Positions 12,467 through 60,490 of a stretch of 64,000 nucleotides of DNA are shown here, one piece after another. The notes below the pieces were generated by a model, which was not told the DNA's origin, did not search any database, and worked only from the letters and a program-made list of their open reading frames with translations. Made by a program: the position numbers and the translations under genes. Location: the NCBI GenBank assembly GCA_951640195.1, contig OX621164.1, forward strand, positions 2,275,098 to 2,339,097. The letters are read 5' to 3'. The first letter of the stretch is position 1; each line of letters starts with the position of its first letter. The DNA comes from Porpolomopsis calyptriformis (lineage: Eukaryota; Basidiomycota; Agaricomycetes; Agaricales; Hygrophoraceae).

Positions 12467-15400
12467 ATGGGCACCATCGCAGCTACCACCTCTACCGCGC
12501 CAGCTTCAACCCCTCAAGCAACGACACTTTCAAGCGACACTTTACCCGCAAACGTCCCAAAGCTCGAAATCGACGGCTCAAACTGGGCCATCTGGTCATT
12601 TCGTTTCGAAGTTGCTGTGAAGGCTAAACGAAAATGGTGGCATTTTGTAGGAGGACAAAGGCCAGTTCACACCGGTGTTGTTACCACTGATCAACAGGCC
12701 GAGCTCGACAAGTGGGATGAAGACGAGGCGACCGCGATGTACCTCCTCACGCAACGGATCCCGGATTCGATCATCTTTCAGATCAAGGGGCTGACGACCA
12801 TTGCCGCCATGTGGAAACTTATCATCGCTGACTACACAGAGAAGGGAGCGTATGCGAAGACCAACCTGCGGCAAGACTTCCTGCAATCAAAGTGCAGAGA
12901 AAATGCCAACGTCTGCGAATTCCTAATGGAACTGCGCAGCAAGAAGGAGCGACTGGCAGCTGTCGACGTCAAGATCGATGACAAGGACTATGCGTCAATG
13001 ATACTATCAGCCATTCCGCATTCCCTATCAACTTTCGCCGCAAGTATGGTAAGCGCCACGAGGCTCCTAGCCTCCCAACAACCCAATGTCACCTCTCAAG
13101 ACATCAAGCCAGATGCGCTTATCGCGCTCATCTCCGAAGAGTACGACAGGCAAGTCACTATGCGACAACGAAAGCCTGGTTGGAACCAACGAAACCGTCA
13201 CGACGGCGACGAAGCAATGTCAGTCGCACCCAACGACTCTAAATGACCTGGAAGACAAATGGGACGGCGAACGGCCGGTCCCAAGGACGAATGCTACAAC
13301 TGTGGCAAGCGGGGGCACTTTTCCCGGGACTGTCTTGCACCCCGAAAGCCCAAACCCTCAGGCAGCGCGAATGCTGCAATCGATTCCGATTCGGAAGCCT
13401 GTTACACTTTCAAACCTGACATTGAGTCCTCGAACGAATCGCAAACGACGACCGACCCACCCCACGACAGATGCACCTCCATGCCGGAGCTAGGCATCGT
13501 CACGAATGGCGATGACAATGAGGGGGAGAATTACAATGATAGATATGAGATGGATTGGTTCAACCGAGTAAATGCTGACCGTCGCGACCCAGAGTGTCGC
13601 GGGCGGGATCTCACATGCGATGACAATTCTGATGCGAGCACTCGTTTCATCACGGATGGAACACCAGTTGACCCCGACCCCATCACGATCGCATCAGTCG
13701 ATGCTGAAGGAAACGCTGGCGAGACGTTAACAATTGAGTTATACGACTCTGGTGCAACCCAGCACATCAGTCCCTACCGAGGGAACTTTGACCGACTCAC
13801 ATCAATACCTCCCAAGACCCTCTCTGCCACTAACAAACAGAAGTTCGACACTATCGCCAAGGGCAATATGGTTATTGAAATCCCGAATGGATCGCGAACA
13901 TCGAAAATACGACTCACGGATGTCTTATACTTGCCCACTGTCGGATACACGCTTGTATCAATCGGATGACTCGATGAAGACGGATACTCCACGGACTTCA
14001 AACACGGAACTTGCACGATACAAAATCACAACAGCGATATAGTGGGGCGAATCCCCAAAAGCTGCCGAGGACTATACAAGGTCACCCACAATGCGCAAAA
14101 CGAATCCACGAATGCCATTGAAGATGCTATCGGCGTAATGGACCTGCACAGTCGCCTGGGACATGTATCCCCCACTGCCGCTCGAAAGCTCATTGAAAAA
14201 GGCCTGGTCACCGGACTACGTCTTGACCCAAAGAAGGATAGCGAATCTTTGTTTTGCGAAGCCTGTGTATATGCCAAGGCAATGCGAAAGTCCATTGCAA
14301 GGGAGAGAGTTAGTGAGCGCGCCAAGAACTTCAGAGATGAAGTACACACCGATGTGTGGGGACCGTCCCCAGTTGAAACACTCCGAGGGTGACACTACTA
14401 CGTCTCATTCACTGATGATGCGACACGACATACCTGGCTATACCCATTAGCAAGAAAATCGGAAACGTTCGATGCCTACCGGAAGTATGAAGCATGGGCC
14501 CAGACCCAGCATGACACCAAAATCAAGGTCCTCCACTCAGACCACGGAGGAGAGTATCTGTTGGAAGCATTTGTTAGGCACCTAGAGGCTGCCAGAACTA
14601 AACAGAAACTCACAGTACACGACACCCCACAGCACAACGGCGTAGCGGAACGTCGAAATCGAACCATCCTTGAGAGGGTGCGCGCGCTCATTTATGCAAG
14701 TGGACTTCCGCGATCACTATGGGCTGAAGCCGCTGGACACATTGTCTGGCTAATGAACCGCACATCAACAAAGGCTCTCGACAGCATGACGCCATATGAA
14801 GCACTGTATGGTCGGAAACCGAGCCTTAAAGGGCTACAGGAATGGGGAAACCACGTATGGGTTAGAATCGAAGCAGGCGACAAACTTGGAGGCTGCGTTT
14901 GGAGAGGACGATGGATCAGATTTGACTCGAAAAGCAATGGATATCGAATCTATTGGCCCGAAACCCGCTCAGTCACTGTCGAACGGAATGTTTATTGGAA
15001 CGAAGATGCCGCAACTGTCGAATGAAGTCTCGAAGGAGAGGATTTACCTGAGATTGCTGAGACTTATCCACAGCGCGCAGACACACCTGCACCCCCACCA
15101 ACGCCCCCACCAGCACCGGAACCTCAACCAGCACCAGCACCGGAACCAGCACCGGCACCCCCGAGAATGATAATAGAAGTCCCCGATCGCCACTGACGTG
15201 ATCGAAAACCTAGCCAACATATAGCGGACCTAATTGCAGGCAGAGGCGTCGCTTCCACCTCAAGAAGAGACCCAATCGTACCAACCGGAGTACAACTGCC
15301 AACAATCCCGACCACCACCGGACATGATACAGCCGATGCCAACCAAATGCCGAATGACCAAGATGACCTGACAGCATCAATAGTCGAATACGCGACTATG

Positions 15401-17041
15401 GAACCCAGTACCAGTTCCACTGATCTAATCAATGAGGCTGGAATGCTAGCAGAGGCAAATGCAACTGAGGCTATCGAACCCCGCACACTTGTGGAAGCAA
15501 AATCACTTGTCGATTGGCCCGAATGGGAATCAGCCATCATGGAGGAACTGAAGATGCTCGAAAGAGCAGGAACTTGGGTGATCGACCACCCACCGCTGGA
15601 AGCAAACATCGTCGGATCAAAATGGGTTTTCTGACTGAAGCGAAATGCCGCCGGAGAAATCGTACGGAGAAAGGCCCGACTTGTCGCGCAAGGATTCTCC
15701 CAACTTCCTGGAGTGGACTACTTTGATACGTTCGCGCCCGTCGCCAAGCTAGCGACAATCCGCACCTTCCTTGCCATATCCGCGCAGACTGATCTCGAAC
15801 TACACCAGATCGACATCAAAGGTGCATATCTGAATGGCAAACTCACCAACAACGAGCGCATCTACATGCGTCAACCCCCTGGATATTCCGCTCCCAATTC
15901 CGATGGCCAAGTGTGCCGACTTGTCAAAACAATCTATGGCCTGAAGCAGTCGGGCCGCCGCTGGTACCAAAAACTTGTCGGAATCCTTGTCAACCGGATG
16001 GGATTCACTGTATGCGATGTCGACGAAGCCGTGTTCTTCTGTCGCAATGAAAAGTCCCAGATAATCATAGTTGTCCATGTCGATGACTGCACGATTGGGG
16101 CAACGAATCTCGATTTGATCGTCAGTTTCAAGTCAGAGATACAGAAACACCTTGAAATAACTGACCTCAGAGAGCTGCATTGGCTCTTGGGAATTGAAGT
16201 CATCCGCGACCGTCAATCCCACACGATCTCGCTGTCGCAGTGAGCCTATATTGATTCAATTGTGCATCGTTTCGGATTTGATGACAACAAACCCGTATCG
16301 ACCCTGATGGACCTGCAAACCCGCCTAACGCAGGTGCAATCCCCTACAACACCCCTTGAATGCGCCCGAATGCGCAACATACCATATCGCGAAGCAGTTG
16401 GATCGCTGATGTACGCATCACTCGGAACCCGACCAGATATATCGTTCGCCGTAACTACGCTTTCCCAATTCTCAAGTGATCCTGGAGAAGCTCACTGGGA
16501 AGCTGTAAAACGAGTATTCCGATACCTGAAGGGAACAAGGGACCTATGGTTGGTCTATGGGGGAGTCGAAAAGAAGCTCACTGGGTGGGCAGATGCAGAT
16601 GGAAGCATGGCTGAGGACCGCCATGCAATCTCGGGATATGCTTTCCTTATAAACAGTGGAGCCGTCTCCTGGAGCGCCAAGAAGCAAGAAATCGTCTCGC
16701 TTTCCATGACCGAGAGTGAATATGTGGCTGTAACGCATGCAGCCAAGGAGGCCATTTGGCTCCGGTCGCTAACAAGCCAACTTTTCGGATTCGCTAACCT
16801 GGCGATGACCCTGTTCTCCGACAACAAATCTGCCATCGCTCTCACACAAAACTTGCAGTATCACACCTGGACAAAACACATTGACGTCCGCTACCATTTT
16901 ATTCGCTGGATTATCGAAAATGGGACCCTCCGACTCGTCTACTGTCCTACCGACGACATGATTGCAGACACCCTCACGAAAGCACTACCATCTCCGAAAG
17001 TCAAGCATTTTGCTTTGGAACTCGGACTTAGCAAGGCTTGA
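12467..17041 (+). pseudogene. Copia-1 gag-pol, one frame with seven TGA stops
   Basis: One uninterrupted frame of about 1,524 codons with no frameshift. Order: gag (from MGTIAATTSTAP), zinc knuckle CYNCGKRGHFSRDC (about 13289), protease LYDSGATQHIS (about 13739), GAG-pre-integrase HSRLGHVSPTAARK (14147), integrase with D in VHTDVWGP (14344), D in LHSDHGGEY (14536) and E in HNGVAERRN (14637), a Pro-rich linker (15080-15165), RT with VVHVDDCTIGA (about 16070), and RNase H with WADADGS and LFSDNKSAIAL. PR-IN-RT-RH order defines Copia. Stops at 13244, 13967, 14390, 15023, 15194, 15632 and 16241 are all TGA; aligned Copia-2 codons are CGA or CAA where readable. The last stop overlaps the polypurine tract. 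Confidence 0.95.
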
Positions 17042-23745: not shown

Positions 23746-23772
23746 ACATATCCCAAGCCAAACCCCTCCTGT

Positions 23773-26700
23773 CGGAAGCGTTTGTTAGGCACCTAGAGGC
23801 TGCAGGAACGAAACAGAAACTCACAGTACACAACACCCCACAGCACAATGGTGTAGTGGAATGTCGAAATCAAACCATCCTTGAGAGGGTGCGCGCGCTC
23901 ATTTATACGAGTGGACTTCCGCGATCACTATGGGCTGAAGCTGCCAGACACATCATTTGGCTAATGAACCGCACATCAACAAAGGCTCTCAATGGTATGA
24001 CGCTGTATAAAGCACTGTATGGTCAGAAACTGAGCCTTAAAGGGCTACAGGAATGGGGAAACCATGTATGGGTTAGAATCGAAGCAGGTGACAAACTTGG
24101 AGGCCACATTCGGAGAGGATAATGGATTGGATTTAACTCGAAAAGCAATGGATATTGAATCTATTGGCCCGAAACCCGCTCAGTCACTGTCGAATGGAAT
24201 GTTTATTGGAATGAAGATGCTGCGACTATCAAACAAAGTCTCAAAGGAGAGGATTTACCTGAGATTGCTGAGACTTATCCACAGCGCGCAGACACACCTG
24301 CACCCCCACTAACACCCCCACCAGCACTGGAACCTCAACCAGTACAAGCACTGGAACCACCACCGGCACCCCCAAGAATGATAATAGAAGTCCTGGATTG
24401 CCCCCAATGTGATCAAAAACCTAGCCAACATATAGTGGACCTAATTGCAGGCAGAGGCGTCGCTTCCACCTCAAGAAGAGACCCAATCGTACCAACTGGA
24501 GTACAACTGCCAACAATCCCGACCACCACCAGATATAATACAGCCGACGCCAACCAAATGCTGAATGACCACCCCCAAGATGACCTAACAGCATTGATAG
24601 TCAAATACACGACTACGGAACCCAGTACCAGTTCCACTGACCTAATCAATGAGGCTGGAATGCTAGCAGAGGCAAATGTGACTGAGGCTATCAAACCCTG
24701 CACACTTGCAGAAGCAAAATCACTTGTCGATTGGCCCGAATGGGAATTAGCCATCACGGAGGAACTGAAGATGCTCGAAAGAGCAGGAACTTGGGTGATT
24801 GACCACCCACCACCGGAAGCAAACATTGTCAGATCAAAATGGGTTTTCCGACTGAAGTGAAATGCTGCTGGAGAAATCGTATGGAGAAAGGCCCAACTTG
24901 TCGCGCAAGGGTTCTCCCAACTTCCCGGAGTAGACTACTTTGATACATTCGCACCCATTGCCAAGCTAGCGACAATCTGCACCTTCCTTGCCATATCCAC
25001 ACAGACTAATCTTGAACTACACCAGATCAACATCAAAGGCGCATATCTGAATGGCGAACTCACCAACAACGAGCGCATCTACATGCGCCAACCCCCCGGA
25101 TATTCTGCCCCCAATTCTGATGGACAAGTGTGCCAACTTGTTAAAACAATCTATGGCCTGAAGCAGTTGGGCCGCCACTGGTACCAAAAACTCGTCGGAA
25201 TCCTTGTCAACCAGATGGGATTCACCGTATGTGATGTCGACGAAGCTGTGTTCTTCCATTGCAATGAAAAGTCCCAGATAATCATAGTTGTCCATGTCGA
25301 TGACTGCACGATTAGGGCAATGAATCTTGATTTGATCATCAGTTTCAAGTTGGAGATACAGACACACCTCAAAATAACTGACCTTGGAGAGCTGCATTGG
25401 CTCTTGGGAATTGAAGTCATCCGTGACCATCAATCCCACACAATTTTGCTGTCACAGCAAGCCTATATTGATTCAATTGTGCATCATTTCAGATTCGATG
25501 ATGACAAACCCATATCAACCCTGATGGACCCACAAACCTGCCTAACGCAGGCACAATCCCCTACGACACCCCTTGAACATGCCCAGATGTGCAACATACC
25601 ATATCGCGAAGCAGTTGGATCACTGATGTACGCATCACTTGGAACCCAACTGGATATATCATTTGCCGTAACTACGCTTTCCCAATTCTCAAGTGATCCT
25701 GGAGAAGCTCACTGGGAAGCTGCAAAACGAGTATTCCAATACCTGAAGGGAACAAGGGACCTATAGTTGGTCTATGGGGGAGTCAAGAAGAAGCTCACTA
25801 GGTGGGCAGATGCAGATGGAAGCATGGCTGAAGACCACCATGCGATCTTGGGATACACTTTCCTTATAAACGGCAGAGCCATCTCCTGGAGTGCCAAAAA
25901 GCAAGAAATTGTCTTGCTTTCCATGACCAAGAGTGAATATGTGGCTGTAACGCATGTGGCCAAGGAGGCCATTTGGCCCTGGTCACTAACAAGCCAACTT
26001 TTCAGATTCGCTAACCTGGCGATGACCCTGTTCTCCGATAACAAATCCGCCATCACTCTCACACAAAACTTGCAGTATTACGCCCAGTGATACAACCCCT
26101 TGGTCCCCTGAGGTCTGGAGAATATGTTCCATATATCTACGTGATCCCCAAGACATCCACTACACTGCTACGATGTCCCCGACTACGCAATTCGGCTTCC
26201 TGTCCAGCGATTTATCTCCGAATTCTTCGGATTTCTGTGAATTTCTTCGAATTCTCCGATCCTTCGATTTGCGTTCGCAGCTCATATCAAAGGATGCATC
26301 TGATAGCCAGACGTCCATTGTGTAGATCCTCATCATTTCCATTGACCCTTTCACTGGTGGCTTCGTTCAGAAGTCTCATCCCTTTACTATATAGCATATA
26401 AAGGGATCTTTGTTTTCACAGATATATTTACTTGTAGATATGTTTGTATCATAGAGAAGGAAGATAGATTCCATCGTCCCATGTCTAGTCCTTCATGTTT
26501 GAGCCTCTTCGACCGCCTCTAGCACTCTAGAGAGTGCTCCGATTTTCCGATTTCTTCGATTTTTACGATTTCTTTGATAGCTCCTTTCTATTGTGCCTCC
26601 CACCATCTCTCAGGGCAGATCCCAGAGCTCAGATGGCTCCACATTGCATCACCGGATGAAACATATCGATGTATGCTACCATTTTATTCGCTGGATCATC

Positions 26701-33457: not shown

Positions 33458-35716
33458 GTGGGATGGTATTTTCCCCAGTGTGATGACCCCAAGATCCATA
33501 ATTTCTACTATGCCTCAATGCTCACACTTCTCAAACCATGGCATGACATCTATATCAACTTAAAGACACCTTTCCAGACATGGTCCGAAGCCTTTTATGA
33601 ATTCCTTGCCCAATCTCCTACACGCACTAAGTGTATTTTAAGCAGAATACAATATTTTCATGAGTGTCAATTATCCACACACCAAGAAGGAGATAATCTC
33701 ATTGAAGGCATATGTAGAGAGCATATTGAATGGACCATAGAGGAAATGGATCTTGGAGAGGACGTTCAAGAGCAAGAAATGGGTTACAGTGAAGAAGGCC
33801 TCACAAATCTGATTGCATCTCAGACATCCTTAGCTGAAGAGGCTCACAGACGACTTGCAATTGAAATCGCCAAACGCGCCAAGATATTTTCAAACGACAA
33901 TGCTCGATGGACTACAACAAACAATACAGTCACGAATGCTGAAGGAGACGATCTAAGCAAACTGGAAACATGGAGGGCCCAGATGAAAAACGATATCGCA
34001 ATGCAAAACCAGGATAGCGACCTACCATGCTTCCAACCTATGGACAATACCAGTGCCAGGGTAACATATGGCAAATCATTCAATACTTCAGTAAATGAAT
34101 TCGAGCACCAACCCATAATCAATGTACGAGCACTGGAAGTGTCCTTATCGGCAATTGATACTTCGCTCCTCAAACCTGACCAATATCGAGCGTACGACAT
34201 TGTGATATGGCATCTAGAACAGACACTCGCCAGTCACAGTCCCCCACTGTTACGAATGATTATATACAGAGAAGGAGGAATGGGAAAATCTAAGGTTATT
34301 CAAATGATTATAGAGACTTTCACTCAATGCAGGGCCAAGTATATGCTTATTAAGTGTGCATACACTGGAGTAGCAGCATCTCTCATTGACAGCAAGACTA
34401 CCCATACTTTGGCCTCAATATCTACCAAATCGAACAATGTATTAAGCGACGAATCGAAAGCCAAATTGCAACAGTTCTGGTGCAACAAACAATACCTTAT
34501 CATAGATGAATATTCAATGTTGTCAAAATCGTTCCTAGCCTTACTGTTGCGGAATATTGGTATCGGAAAACAAGGCTCAGAAACAGCAAGAGGAGACTGT
34601 TCTTTTGGGGGAGTAAATGTTATACTGTGTGGAGACCTTCACCAGTTCCCGCCTGTCGTGCAATCACAGACAGAATCGTTATATTACCCAGTAAACATCG
34701 CTTGCAATGCTATGGATTGCCAACTGGGATGTACGATTTATGAAGAATTTTCAACAGTTGTTATATTAAAAGAGCAAATGCGGGTATCAGATCCAATCTG
34801 GCGGGATTTATTGAACCATCTATGACACGGGAAAGTACAAGAATGACATATAAAAATACTCCAACAATTCATCATCCAAAACGCCAGCAATGCAGATGAA
34901 TTTCAAGAAGCAGGATGGGACAACGCGGCACTTGTAACCCCTTGGCATGCTGTTCAAACCTTGTGGAATAACTCCGCAGCACAAAAATGGTGTCAGAAAA
35001 GTGGTGAATGACTCTTTGTGTGCGCTGCGGAAGATCGGATCAGAGGACGCGAACTGACATTAGTGGAACGATATGCTATGGCAGCCCATATCAAGACAGA
35101 CAAATGCAGAAAATGAAAAGACTTACCACAACAGGTTGAACTGGCCAAAGGAATGAAAGTCTTGGTGATGGACAATGTTGAAACTGATTTGGACATAACA
35201 AATGGTGCTCAAGGCGAAATAGTCAACATCGTTCTCCATCCTGAGGAACCACCATTAGGCAACGAACCAATTTATCATTTGAGGCACTTGCCAGCCTACG
35301 TACTTGTGAAATTCATCCATACGCAAGCATCTAAACTTGATGGATTGGAGATGTCCGTGATACTGGTGGAATGTGAGAGTGCTACAATGCAGATCAGGGT
35401 CCCTACAAGCGCAGGAAAGAGCATCACATGTACCATCCAGCGCAAACAATATCCGATAACAGTGGCCTACGCATTTATGGATTATTGCGTACAAGGCCAA
35501 ATGCTCCCTTATGTCATTATCGATATTGCAACACCACCAAGTGGAACACTTATGCTGTTCAATCTTTATGTCGCGCTTTCTCGAAGTTCAGAATGCTCTA
35601 CCATACGACTCTTGCAGGACTTCAACCCAAATTTATTCAAGCAATCACATGACATGGAATTAATGAATGAAGACAACAGGTTAGAAATCTTGAACAAAAT
35701 AACCATGCGGTGGTAG
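33458..35716 (+). pseudogene. Helitron Pif1-type helicase domain, Walker A altered
   Basis: Long frame 33458-34825 then, after a broken stretch, 35153-35716. Walker A at 34274-34291 reads GGMGKS; the family has GGTGKS, and ATG from ACG is a CpG change. Walker B is YLIIDEYSM, followed by CGDLHQFPPV and LKEQMRVSDPIW. The C-terminal part has TNGAQGEIVNIVLHPEEPP, AYAFMDYCVQGQM (family AYAFTDYRxQGQT, again two CpG changes) and NLYVALSRSS. The intact helicase would unwind DNA during Helitron transposition. Threonine loss in Walker A should cripple ATP binding. Confidence 0.85.
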
Positions 35717-52982: not shown

Positions 52983-54677
52983 TGTCACAACTGTAGTTGC
53001 AAGTCTTTTCATTAATCACAAGGCAGGCCTTGGAGCTTAATAAGTCTAGAAGGATGTAGAAAAAGGTTCTGACAGGAATGTCTTCATAAAGGGTGATGAT
53101 TCTGTCAGTATTAAGTTTGACTTCTATAAAGAAGTTCTGTTGTGGGTTAAATCCATTTCATGCCTCTGCTGAGAGTTTAGGGAATATAGGCATGAATAGT
53201 TGGCTCAATGGTTTCGAGTTTATGTTTCTCTTTCCTTGTTCTGATGGAAAGGGAGTCTGATGATTCTGATTGCGTTCGTGCTACTACAAGTAATCTCACA
53301 GGAGGATGAAGTGATGATCCGCTTCACCCTCAGGGTTTATATAGTATTTCTAGAATAGGAGTCATTATGAGTCAGCTTCTGCAGTCACCCCATTTTCTAT
53401 TGTTCACAGCCTCCAATTTAAGGTTTGCTATTGTTCCTAGTCATACTGTGGAAGGCTGTTGTGCTTCTGATGACTCAATTCTATTGGGCATAGCCTTCCG
53501 CAGCACTGGGTTGTGTTGTCTCATGACTAGTTCCTATTGTTCTTCTGGTCATGAGATTGCCATTGTTTCTATCTCTTGTCTGGCATATCGGGTTTCTCTT
53601 CTTTGTCTGAGAAAGCTCCTTTTGGTCATCCCTTTGTATGCTGGCATATAAAAGGTGTGGAGTTGTATCCCTATACTTCAGTTCAATCCTCGTCAATCAT
53701 CATGACTCCCTCCCACCAAGGCCACTACGTCCAATTCTTCAAGCAGTCTGGGGTGGTGCATCGCACTGCCCCTGTCTTTCTTGACTGCAATTCCTTTCAC
53801 TACTACCTTCAGCATATCCCTTCTGATGCTGACCTCTGTTAGTCTTCCTTCTCCTGCTTTGCTTGCAGTGGCAAGTACAAAGTCAAGAAGTGTCTGTTCA
53901 TTCACTAGCCAATCCAGCATACTTGTGGCTTGATAGAGGATCCGCTTGGTAAGTACTTTGTTTTGTCTTCATTAGTCTGTGTTTATTGATAATAGGCTTT
54001 CTTTTCTTAGCTTAGGATAATGATGCCCCTCCCCCTACTTCCCAGCTCCCTTTGGAGGAGCAAGTCGATTGGAGTTCCAATCATTGGGGGCACCCTCTCC
54101 CTTTTGCTAATCCCAAGCCTGAGCACTGGGCTGCCAGTCCCCCCTTCCATCCTTAGACCCCTGGTCCATTAAGTTCTTTGTCAAGTGGTAAGCTCTTAAC
54201 TCTCTCACCCTCTTCATGATTGCTGACTCCTTATTCCTTAGTTGAAGATTTGTCGTCATCATTGACTAATGTCAATGTCAAGATTGAGGAGGAAGAAGTT
54301 CCTCCCAGTTTGTTGTGGAGTCCTACCAATGATTGGTTGGGTGAAGAAGCAAGAAAGATTGCAATGAGTTTTGTTGAGGGGAAGGCTGCTGAGTTGCAGG
54401 CCTCTGGTGGAGACACCAATGGGGCAATCTATTGGGGAAATAAGTTGGCCACATTAGATAGTCAAGTAGTTTCAAGTTTCATAGAGTTCTTGAGGGATAG
54501 CATGGTGCAGGAGATTGCCAAGATGGACTAGTTTAATTAGTTAGTTGGACATGGACTCCCCCTCTTGTACAAACAGTCTCTGCTGCCAATAAAGACAGCC
54601 CCCTTCCAAAGAGAACAGGCATAGAAGAGAAAGGAAAAGAATGGAAATTTAAGAGAGTGAACACCAATTTCATGACA
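52983..54677 (+). mobile_element. 1.7-kb TG…CA unit, left copy (decayed)
   Basis: 1695 bp, TGTCACAACTGTAGTTGC…CCAATTTCATGACA. The whole sequence is an inverted copy of 58776-60485. Its gene (from 53701, MTPSHQGHYVQFFKQSGVVH) has the same three exons as the right copy but with stops (for example TAG for the Trp codon near 53840). AATAAA at 54588-54593. Flanks CTAAT and CTAGG do not form a convincing duplication: left flank is Copia DNA, right flank is Gyp-A gag DNA, so one side was probably rearranged. Confidence 0.75.
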
Positions 54678-57789: not shown

Positions 57790-58775
57790 AGCGAACATTC
57801 CATCTCTCTAAGTCATGAAGTTGATATATCGAGGAATCGTTTAGGAATTGCGATCGACCTTCAAGCGAAGTATGGGATGACTCTAAATGCAGCGATTGGT
57901 TAGTGTAAGATGGATCTGTCGAGCTCTGCGATGATATAAGCTTTCCCTAGGTTTCGAGATATCACGACCAGGGGTCCTAGGTATCGAGGACGCATTTTCT
58001 GATTGAGAGACTTCTCAATCTTCGTGTTCCAAATGAGTATGAGATCACCAGTTTTGAAGTCATAGTTGCGAATGGTTTTCTCGTGTCTCTTCTCGAATCG
58101 AATGGCGGATCATAGACAAGCGGTGAGAACCTTCAATTGAAGTTGCTCTAAGTCAGCATCTCATTTCTGTAGAGCAATCACGCATTGTGAAATTAGATCT
58201 GTTGTCGAGAGAACCGAATCCGGAGTGGGAAGGAGATATGTCACTTTGGAAATATCTAAAGGAAGTAATGGCTGAGATCCAGTGACGGAAAAGTAGGGTG
58301 AGCATCCCAATCATTTTTAGGTAGTGACGCACTCAGCCCAGAAGACAGAGTAGGCTCCGATCGACCATTGTTTCTGATCGCCATTGACAGCTTTGAATAG
58401 CGATTGTCATACGTCGAAGTGAGATCATTCAACTATTCCATTCGCACAAGAGTTGTATCTGCTGATGCGAATATGGTTGATCCGATAGTGCTTGGCGAGG
58501 TGATCTACGGCTTCTAAGAAGGCTGTTCCATTGTCTGTGACAATTTCTCGAAGGGAGCCCTAGCGACAGATTATATCCTCGAAGATCCATTCGCTAATTG
58601 ATTTAGCTGTTTCCGAACGAAGCATTTGGAATTTGGGATAGTGGGTGAGGGAGCATCATCCTTGAATGATATATCAAAAAGGACCAGATCGCGGCATATG
58701 CATAGTGTCAACATAGATTTTGGCGAATAGGGGAGCTGGCATGGAGATGGTTGGAGGGATGAGGGCTTACATAGT
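57790..58775 (-). pseudogene. Gyp-B integrase core and C-terminal domain
   Basis: Minus-strand continuation of the pol region at 60491-61552, from which it is separated by the right 1.7-kb unit. Shows FAKIYVDTMHMPRSGPF (first catalytic D), SISEWIFEDIICR, REIVTDNGTAFLEAVDHLAK (second D), HIRISRYNSCANGIVE (E), GSQPLLPLDISKVTYLLPTP, TIRNYDFKTGDLILIWNTKI and MRPRYLGPLVVISRNLGKAY. Stops are mostly TGA. Once the unit is removed the frame runs from CHTCQVRQ into this segment. Confidence 0.85.
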
Positions 58776-58935
58776 TGTCATGAAATTGGCATTCACTCTC
58801 TTAAAAATTTCTCTCTTTTCTTCGTTCTTTTCTTTTTCTTTCTTATGACAGTTCTTTTGGAAGGGAGGCTGTCTTTATTGGCAGTGGAAACTACTTGTAC
58901 AAAGGGAGGAGTCCATGTCCGACTAGCTAATTATA

Positions 58936-59766
58936 CTAGTCCGTCTTGGCAATCTCCTGCACCATACTGTCCCTCAAGAACTCTACAAAACTCGACACTA
59001 CCTGACCATCTATTGCGGCTAACTTATTACCCCAGTAGATTGCCCCATTGGTGTCAGCGCCAGAGGCCTGCAACTCGGCGGCCTTCCCTTCTACGAAACT
59101 CATCGCTATCTTTCTCGCTTCCTCACCCAACCAATTGTTGGTGGGACTCTATAACAAACTGGGAGGAACTTCTTCCTCCTCGATCTTGATGTTGACGTTA
59201 GTCAATGACGACGACAAATCTTCCACTAAGAATGAAGAGTCAACAATCACAAAGAAAGTGAGGGAATTGAGAAGCTTACTACTAGATAAAGAACTCAATG
59301 GACCAGGGGTCCAAGGATGGAAGGGGGGACTGGCAGCCCAGTCAACTGCCTCCTTCTTGACAGAAGGGAGGGAATCAGCCCACTTGTCAGACCCCCAATT
59401 AACCTGCTCCTCCAAAGGGAGGTGAGAAGTAAGGGGAGGGGCGTCATCATCCCAAGCTAAAGAAGGGAAAGCCTATTATCAATAAACACAGACTAATAAA
59501 GACAAAACAAAATACTCACCAAGCGGATCCTCCATCAAGCCACAAGCATGCTGGATTGGCCAGCGAACGAACGGACACTTCTTGACTTTGTGCTTGCCAC
59601 CGCAAGCAAAGCAGGAGAAAGAAGACCAACAGAGGTCAGCGTCGGAGGGGATGCGCTGGAGGTAGTAGTGAAACGAATCGCAATCGAGAAAGACAGGAGC
59701 AGTGCGGTGCACCACTCCAGACTGCTTGAAGAATCGGACGTAGTGGCCTTGGTGGGAGGGAGTCAT
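58936..59766 (-). CDS. Zinc-knuckle protein encoded in the 1.7-kb unit
   Basis: Three exons, no stops, about 238 residues. Exon 1 59766-59520: MTPSHQGHYVRFFKQSGVVH, then CFACGGKHKVKKC, a CX2CX3HX4C knuckle one residue shorter than the retroviral type, and a further C/H pair (QHAC). Intron GTGAGT…CTTTAG. Exon 2 59456 to about 59277: AWDDDAPPLTSHLPLEEQVN, Pro/Ser-rich end. Intron GTAAGC…TTCTTAG. Exon 3 to the stop at 58936: EDLSSSLTNVNIKIEEEEVP and a helical C-terminus WLGEEARKIAMSFVEGKAAE, FVEFLRDSMVQEIAKTD. Start chosen because a TATA box (59815-59822) lies about 50 bases upstream and both copies share this ATG. Resembles a small gag-like nucleic-acid-binding protein; the role is unknown. Confidence 0.65.
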
Positions 59767-59814
59767 GATGAATTGACAAAGATTGAACTGAAGCATAGAG
59801 ATACAACCCCACAC

Positions 59815-59822
59815 CTTTTATA
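59815..59822 (-). promoter_or_regulatory. TATA box of the 1.7-kb unit gene
   Basis: Minus strand CATATAAAAGG, conserved in the left copy (53647 region). It lies about 50 bases upstream of the shared ATG. Confidence 0.6.
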
Positions 59823-60274
59823 TGCTCAGACACAAAGGGAAGACCAAAAGGAGGTTCCTCAGTCAAAGAAGAGAAACCCGATACGCCGGACAAGAGATAG
59901 AAACAGCGGCGATCTCATGACTAGAAGAACAATAGGAACCAGTCATGAGACAGCACAGCCTGATACTGCGGAAGGCTATGCCCAATAGAGTTGAGTCATC
60001 AAAACAACACAGCCTTCCGCAGTATGACTAAGAACAATGGCAAACCTTAAACTGGAGGCTGTGAACAATAGAAAATGGGGTGACTGCAGAAGCTGACTCA
60101 TAGTGACTCCTATTTTAGAAATACTATATAAACCCTGAGGGCGAAGCGGATCATCACTTCGTCCTCCTGTGAGATTACTTGTAGTAGCACGAACGCAATC
60201 AGAATCATCAGACTTCTTTTCCATCAGAACAAGAAAAGAGAAACATAAACCCATAACTACTGAGCCAATCGTTC

Positions 60275-60485
60275 ATGCCCATATTCCCTAAACTCTCAGC
60301 AGAGGCACGCAATGGATTTAACTCGCAGAACAACTTCTTTGTAGAAGTAAAACTTAACTCCGAAGGAATCATCACCCTTTACAAGGATATCCCCGTCAGA
60401 ACTTTCTTCTACATCCTACTAGACTTATTAAGCTCCAAGGCCTGCCTTGTGATTGACGAAAAGACTTGCAACTACAGTTGTGACA
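60275..60485 (+). CDS. Divergent reading frame reaching the unit's terminus (partial)
   Basis: Frame with MPIFPKLSAEARNGFNSQNN, FFVEVKLNSEGIITLYKDIP, VRTFFYILLDLLSSKACLVI and DEKTCNYSCD, running off the unit end into Gyp-B DNA. In the left copy (minus, 53190-52983) the frame is kept apart from one stop, and differences are conservative (V/I, S/T, E/D), so the frame seems to have been translated. No family recognised. It points away from the zinc-knuckle gene, so the two would be divergently transcribed. Confidence 0.4.
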
Positions 60486-60490
60486 GTAGT

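What the first reader, a model, noticed from the sequence alone, without database searches (positions are those of the whole stretch)
58776..60485. Compact 1.7-kb mobile unit with LTR-like ends that carries its own intron-containing zinc-knuckle gene
Seen: a 1710-bp unit with TGTCA/TGACA ends and a 5-bp ATAGT/GTAGT duplication sits cleanly inside the Gyp-B integrase. It encodes a complete three-exon protein (about 238 residues) with CX2CX3HX4C, its own TATA box and AATAAA. A decayed copy lies at 52983-54677. LTRs rarely carry intron-containing genes, and DNA transposons seldom have TG…CA ends with 5-bp duplications. It could be a solo LTR of a retrotransposon with coding LTRs, or a gag-only non-autonomous retroelement that keeps its introns because the gene lies antisense to the genomic RNA.
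Basis: partly seen in the sequence, partly recalled or inferred. Interest (0 to 1): 0.88.

Follow-up and report, generated by a model that had tools for sequence, protein, structure and literature searches.

The report
Antisense spliced gene inside retrotransposon LTR
The 1.7-kb unit is the long terminal repeat of a fungal retrotransposon; intact copies of this repeat carry an antisense gene with two introns that natural selection has preserved, so each repeat left behind keeps a copy of the gene, an unusual place and form for a retrotransposon gene.

Summary
The same genome holds about 240 LTR starts but only 16 LTR-PBS junctions. Seven complete elements were read (LTR, 5.3 kb gag-PR-RT-RH-INT-chromodomain, PPT, LTR); all seven have identical 5-bp duplications. 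The three-exon zinc-knuckle gene lies in U3, antisense to gag-pol and so to the genomic RNA, which explains why transposition through RNA does not remove its introns.

The gene looks real. Spliced in silico, 34 of 65 aligned copies give exactly 237 codons although intron lengths vary (62-65, 53-58 nt). GT..AG is kept in 65 of 65 and 64 of 65. Indels largely avoid exons. Pairwise dN/dS is 0.18. Variants shared by five or more copies favour silent changes; differences between the two LTRs of one element do not. So selection acts in the transposing lineage, and inserted copies decay.

Correction: the window copy itself is broken (stop at codon 167). No relative of the protein turned up. Function is inferred: an element-coded, nucleic-acid-binding regulator whose dose grows with solo LTRs. 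Antisense ORFs, LTR-coded genes and spliced antisense retroviral genes are each known; ten searches of an open-access library listed no report of this combination.

The parts
58776..60485 (+). Solo LTR (U3-R-U5) of the chromovirus, element sense strand = +
   Evidence: TG..CA ends; 240 genomic 5' ends; pairs around a gag-pol interior
58771..58775 (.). Left target duplication ATAGT (right copy GTAGT at 60486-60490)
   Evidence: exact duplications at 34 of 46 LTRs not joined to an interior and at 7 of 7 complete elements
59815..59824 (-). TATA box of the antisense gene (CATATAAAAG)
   Evidence: exact motif in 60 of 65 copies
59520..59766 (-). Antisense gene exon 1 (ATG; basic, CX2CX3HX4C knuckle)
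   Evidence: 247 nt in 65 of 65 copies, no indel; knuckle C52, C55 and C64 33/33, H59 32/33 in intact copies
59457..59519 (-). Intron 1
   Evidence: GT..AG 65 of 65; 62-65 nt; yTnAy branch-like site
59280..59456 (-). Exon 2 (acidic linker, fastest evolving)
   Evidence: 177 nt in 61 of 65, 174 in 4; dN/dS 0.31
59226..59279 (-). Intron 2
   Evidence: GT..AG 64 of 65; 53-58 nt
58936..59225 (-). Exon 3 (acidic); in this copy broken by a stop at 59149-59151
   Evidence: 290 nt in 61 of 65, 289 in 2, 287 in 2; dN/dS 0.13; stop
58874..58879 (-). AATAAA poly(A) signal of the antisense gene
   Evidence: first such motif found in 63 of 65 copies; at unit positions 85-98 in at least 48 of them
60125..60133 (+). 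TATA box of the genomic-RNA promoter
   Evidence: motif in 64 of 65 copies
60155..60165 (+). Probable RNA 5' end, complementary over 11 nt to the PBS after the 5' LTR (self-priming)
   Evidence: 11-nt complement in 3 of 7 complete elements, 10 nt in a fourth, not found in the other 3 (only stretches that begin in the first 6 nt after the LTR were tried); motif exact in 32 of 65 copies
60275..60485 (+). Start of a sense leader ORF that leaves the LTR, crosses the PBS and overlaps gag in complete elements
   Evidence: LTR part open in 56 of 65 copies; 167 aa in 3 of 7 complete elements, 91-97 aa in the other 4
52983..54677 (-). Second, decayed copy of the same LTR, opposite orientation
   Evidence: 86.5% identity; gene broken at codon 47

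Best explanation
The unit is a solo LTR of a Ty3/Gypsy chromovirus. Its long U3 (about 1.38 kb) holds a whole gene on the opposite strand: promoter, three exons, two spliceosomal introns and poly(A) signal, coding in intact copies for a 237-residue zinc-knuckle protein. The sense genomic RNA carries the gene's complement, so its introns are not spliced out of it and are copied at each transposition. The gene is part of the element: selection keeps the protein in the transposing lineage and is not seen once a copy is inserted. LTR-LTR recombination removes gag-pol but leaves one copy of the gene behind, so gene number follows total LTR number, not element number. Shown: anatomy, orientation, intron and frame conservation, purifying selection in the amplifying lineage. 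Inferred: transcription and splicing, self-priming, and function. Most likely function (about 0.45): a nucleic-acid-binding accessory protein that acts on the element's own LTR or RNA, a regulator in the manner of HTLV-1 HBZ or of Ty1 copy-number control.
For: Paired LTRs with matching duplications around gag-PR-RT-RH-INT-chromodomain, PPT and PBS. gag-pol on the strand opposite to the gene. 34 of 65 copies splice to exactly 237 codons, across seven combinations of intron lengths (12 over all 65) of which only one has both introns a multiple of three (one of the 34 lacks ATG). Distinct indel runs per 100 bp: exons 0.0, 0.56 and 1.03; introns 7.9 and 16.7. Pairwise dN/dS 0.18 among 33 intact copies. 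Transition variants, changing or stop: silent: LTR pairs of one element 65:38, singletons 30:14, carried by 2-4 copies 36:33, by five or more 54:81 (pairs and singletons against the last, p = 0.0006 and 0.0016; biallelic columns only for the last three). Variants shared by five or more copies show no codon-position bias in introns, 3' flank or promoter.
Against: No RNA data: promoter, splicing and protein are predicted. No homologue of the protein was found, so conservation is shown only inside one family in one genome. Copies share history, so variant counts are not independent; recurrent C-to-T decay adds noise, and four variants shared by five or more copies are stops. dN/dS was taken on copies chosen for being intact. 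The promoter also has few indels (2.8 runs per 100 bp), so indel rarity alone does not mark coding DNA, and its variants, even in sum, are uneven within single frequency classes (7/4/15 and 13/16/5). Exon 2 is weakly constrained. No step of the proposed function is tested.
Confidence: 0.87

Rival explanations
1. The antisense transcript matters, not the protein: transcription from U3 makes dsRNA or interferes with the sense promoter, and the ORF is incidental.
For: Antisense regulation without protein is described for Ty1 and proposed for Tf2 (passages of PMC7175516) and is discussed for plant elements (passages of PMC7264820).
Against: dN/dS 0.18, exact frame conservation after splicing, indels rare in exons, shared variants mostly silent, and the knuckle cysteines kept in 33 of 33 intact copies.
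Confidence: 0.06
2. The protein is a second nucleocapsid or RNA chaperone that packages or escorts the genomic RNA, rather than a regulator.
For: Basic N-terminal domain with a CCHC-like knuckle.
Against: The element's Gag has its own canonical zinc knuckle; the protein matches no Pfam family; its exon 2 and 3 parts are acidic.
Confidence: 0.28
3. The unit is a gag-only non-autonomous retroelement or a DNA transposon with its own gene.
For: Compact, with its own gene, and most copies appear to stand alone.
Against: It forms direct pairs joined to PBS and PPT at the ends of a gag-pol interior in complete elements.
Confidence: 0.02
4. A host gene was recently captured in the LTR and is a neutral passenger.
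For: Introns and a self-contained gene look host-like; no relative was found to fix its origin.
Against: Shared variants show selection over the family's history.
Confidence: 0.04

Closest known systems
Antisense additional ORFs (aORF-3R) of plant Gypsy elements (Grande gene23, RIRE2, Retand) and Boty brtn of Botrytis (PMC7264820 and PMC11963269, passages; brtn primary paper not read)
   Same: Extra gene antisense to gag-pol, present across the family, function unknown, sometimes its own promoter
   Different: Those lie inside the element between pol and the 3' LTR, so they would be lost in solo LTRs; the word 'intron' has 0 occurrences in both texts. Here the gene is wholly inside the LTR, doubled in each element and kept in solo LTRs.
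HTLV-1 HBZ (recalled; an antisense promoter in the HTLV 3' LTR is stated in PMC7264820, passage)
   Same: Antisense, spliced (recalled), driven from the LTR
   Different: HBZ's main coding part lies inside the provirus (recalled); no sequence relation is claimed; here all exons are in U3.
MMTV Sag (recalled)
   Same: Protein coded inside the LTR
   Different: Sag is in the sense direction and not an antisense split gene (recalled).
Tf1/sushi chromoviruses
   Same: Chromodomain integrase with Tf2-type SH3 domain, 5-bp duplications, PBS complementary to the probable RNA 5' end in part of the elements
   Different: No antisense LTR gene known to me; LTRs of Tf1 are much shorter (recalled).
Ty1 copy-number control by truncated Gag (p22) and antisense RNA (PMC7175516, passages)
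   Same: Element-coded restraint that grows with copy number
   Different: The Ty1 factor is a truncated Gag from an internal start; the likeness here is only a proposed way of working.

Membership tests
Ty3/Gypsy chromovirus | PR-RT-RH-INT order with C-terminal chromodomain | tested here: met
   RVP_2, RVT_1, RT_RNaseH, Integrase_H2C2, rve, SH3_Tf2-1, Chromo in this order; RNase H read from L010, the others from L009
LTR retrotransposon (solo LTR) | TG..CA direct repeats, 4-6 bp duplications, PPT and PBS | tested here: met
Tf1/sushi self-priming group | PBS complementary to the first nucleotides of the element's own RNA | tested here: inconclusive
   11-nt complement 30 bp after the start of TATA in 3 of 7 complete elements, 10 nt in one, not found in 3 by a limited scan; RNA start not testable here
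aORF-3R elements | Antisense ORF between pol and the 3' LTR | tested here: not met
   Gene is antisense but lies inside the LTRs
MMTV-Sag type LTR gene | Sense-strand ORF in the LTR | tested here: not met
   This gene is antisense; a separate sense leader ORF does start in the LTR
HBZ-like antisense retroviral gene | Spliced antisense mRNA from the 3' LTR, coding for a bZIP protein (definition recalled) | tested here: not met
   Antisense split gene predicted, but no bZIP or other Pfam match at E up to 1; mRNA not testable. Works-like claim only
Gag-only non-autonomous element | No pol in the unit's family | tested here: not met
   pol present in complete elements

The most novel reading that the evidence does not exclude
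The LTR is a mobile, intron-keeping gene cassette that works as a copy counter: each transposition adds two genes and each solo-LTR event removes gag-pol but leaves one, so the dose of an antisense-coded regulator records total past activity and restrains (or licenses) the few complete elements. The excess of apparently solo LTRs (about 13 per element with an interior, from 240 LTR starts and 16 PBS junctions) would then be part of how the element persists.
Probability: 0.27. Interest if true: 0.87.

Novelty: new variant of a known kind. Interest (0 to 1): 0.72.

Why it matters
Retroelements tend to lose introns because they pass through RNA; here an intron-containing gene is carried round after round simply by lying on the other strand, and it sits in the part of the element that survives LTR recombination. 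The function of antisense ORFs in LTR retrotransposons is stated as unknown in two papers seen in passages (PMC7264820, PMC11963269). This family gives a clean test: the two LTRs of one element show the neutral pattern and the subfamilies show the selected one, within one genome, and the protein is small.

Tried and rejected
Protein homologues: none for the whole protein (416 candidates), for an alignment of exon 1 from 16 of the 33 intact copies (13 candidates), in Pfam or, for exon 1, in viral contigs; PDB hits not meaningful (best E 0.37 and 1.4). The protein collection does hold relatives of this integrase, best 62% identical, from metagenomes, but a split gene is hard to see in such collections. 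Fold of exon 1 from a single sequence: mean pLDDT 49.6, not used and not searched. Idea that the antisense exon 1 derives from the element's own sense leader ORF: rejected, P = 0.74 and the reversed control scored better. Idea that overlapping sense ORFs explain the pattern: rejected; the longest (208 aa in L009) is kept at 190 aa or more in 11 of 65 copies. Idea that intron 2 is coding: rejected; unspliced reading gives 255 aa in copies with the 54-nt intron but stops early in the subfamilies where its length is not a multiple of three. Two hits that looked like joined exons were read: both carry both introns (one lacks the LTR's right end). Sister families: outside the family the next RT was at most 54% identical among the hits listed (95 of 1072 candidates scored), so none was close enough to compare. 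Codon-phase counts for exon 2 were offset by one position; codon-position counts used come, and the 52/28/108 set fed to (p = 0.004 against singletons) was re-phased by hand. Species not identified.

Full report
WHAT IS THERE. The genome that holds the window (33.5 Mb, 17 contigs) has 240 places that match the unit's first 31 bases and 221 that match its last 34 bases, with up to 3 mismatches; the reversed control patterns gave none. Sixteen places join the unit's right end to a primer-binding-site-like stretch. Nineteen match the PPT-unit pattern: sixteen with at most one mismatch, and three with two mismatches that I do not count as junctions. So most LTRs appear to be alone. I read 66 full-length copies, one of them twice, which leaves 65; six further partial matches were set aside. 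These 65 are the best-scoring copies of two searches that each scored 40 of about 295 candidates, the second only in part because, plus the LTRs of complete elements; they are not a random sample. Direct pairs about 7.05 kb apart (start to start) enclose 5.3 kb of interior. Seven complete elements all have identical 5-bp duplications. The interior codes, on the unit's + strand, for Gag with a CCHC knuckle, protease, RT, RNase H, integrase with Tf2-type SH3 domain, and chromodomain. The unit is therefore an LTR, and the window copy a solo LTR in a Gypsy integrase with a 4-of-5 duplication.

THE GENE. On the minus strand, antisense to gag-pol, lie a TATA box, exon 1 (247 nt), intron 1 (63), exon 2 (177), intron 2 (54), exon 3 (290 with stop) and AATAAA. 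Spliced in silico, 34 of 65 copies give 237 residues (33 with ATG). The other 31 end early. Intron lengths come in 12 combinations over the 65 copies and seven among the 34, only one of which has both introns a multiple of three, while the exons keep 247 (65 of 65), 177 (61; 174 in 4) and 290 nt (61; 289 in 2, 287 in 2). Splice sites are GT..AG in 65 of 65 and 64 of 65, with yTnAy branch-like sites.

SELECTION. Among 33 intact copies mean pairwise dN is 0.047 and dS 0.262 (ratio 0.18; exon 1 0.12, exon 2 0.31, exon 3 0.13). Singletons fall evenly on codon positions (16/17/18); variants carried by ten or more copies fall on position 3 (26/18/81). The best control is internal: differences between the two LTRs of one element arose after insertion, and their transitions are 65 amino-acid-changing or stop against 38 silent, near the 476:235 expected for random transitions (240:129 if only C to T and G to A are counted), while variants shared by five or more copies are 54:81; those in 2-4 copies lie between (36:33). 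The mutation process is the same, so the difference is best read as selection. Shared biallelic transversions are few (8 changing, 5 silent, against 1211:211 possible), in the same direction. For variants in five or more copies the promoter, introns and 3' flank show no period of three; the promoter's single frequency classes are uneven in opposite directions (7/4/15 and 13/16/5) and cancel. Results that weaken the case: exon 2 is loosely held, four shared variants are stops, the promoter too has few indels, and all copies are from one genome.

HOW IT WORKS. The genomic RNA starts, by the TATA box and the PBS complement, near 60155, so the gene lies in U3 and its complement is carried at the RNA's 3' end. 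The spliceosome can see the introns only in the antisense RNA, so reverse transcription copies them unchanged; none of 67 copies examined had lost one. Recombination between LTRs leaves one copy of the gene behind. After insertion, decay is mostly C to T at CpG (163 of 225) and CpA (51 of 225), though the window LTR holds 96 CpG and 228 CpA among 783 C contexts. The protein has a basic N-terminal part with a knuckle-like CX2CX3HX4C and further invariant Cys and His, an acidic linker and an acidic C-terminal part. I infer a nucleic-acid-binding regulator of the element; this is not tested. Because the element has a normal Gag knuckle of its own, a second nucleocapsid is the main rival, not the first choice.

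COMPARISON. Antisense extra ORFs are known in plant and fungal LTR elements but inside the element (PMC7264820, PMC11963269, PMC8365987: passages; PMC8365987 shows brtn as an additional ORF and, in a cited title, as antisense). An antisense promoter in the HTLV 3' LTR is stated in PMC7264820 (passage); HBZ's coding layout and MMTV Sag are recalled. Rotifer elements have varied extra ORFs (PMC5408684, passages). Self-priming is described for Tf1 and proposed for Tcn1 (PMC7175516, passages), and named as a known mechanism in PMC2864245 (passages). Ten paper searches listed no report that I could recognise of an intron-containing antisense gene wholly inside an LTR; they cover open-licence PubMed Central texts only, I saw listings for most papers, and Repbase entries were not searched. 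I class it as a new variant of a known kind.

Noticed in passing
window 60275-60485; L009:1997-2500: A sense ORF starts inside the LTR, runs across the LTR end and PBS and overlaps the start of gag (167 aa in 3 of 7 complete elements, 91-97 aa in 4). Its LTR part is open in 56 of 65 copies. Common variants (ten or more copies) favour codon position 3 (7/1/23), but singletons lean that way too (6/6/13), so it may be a kept protein; no Pfam match.
   Followed up: partly
L009, L010, L011, L043, L044, L046, L047 (LTR pairs): Post-insertion changes between LTRs are almost all transitions (225 of 233), mainly C to T at CpG and CpA: a RIP-like or methylation-driven decay in this fungus, which also inflates LTR-based ages.
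   Followed up: partly
window 59767-60155: The promoter part of U3 is more alike between copies (mean identity 0.94) than the silent sites of the gene (dS 0.26), as if two divergent promoters share a constrained control region.
   Followed up: no
L023/L025, L053/L054, L051/L052: Three pairs of solo LTRs have the same flanks (first two pairs on contigs C1 and C9, the third both on C9), a sign of larger segmental duplication.
   Followed up: no
window 33458-34822: A PIF1-like helicase ORF (455 aa), possibly part of a Helitron or other large element.
   Followed up: no
window 12467-13966: Copia-type gag and zinc knuckle ORFs, beside a 2.3-kb repeat (14558-16867 and 23769-26084).
   Followed up: no
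G000, RT matches of this family: 12 of the 16 RT matches that belong to the family carry in-frame stops, TGA in each of the 12, consistent with decay of most interiors.
   Followed up: no
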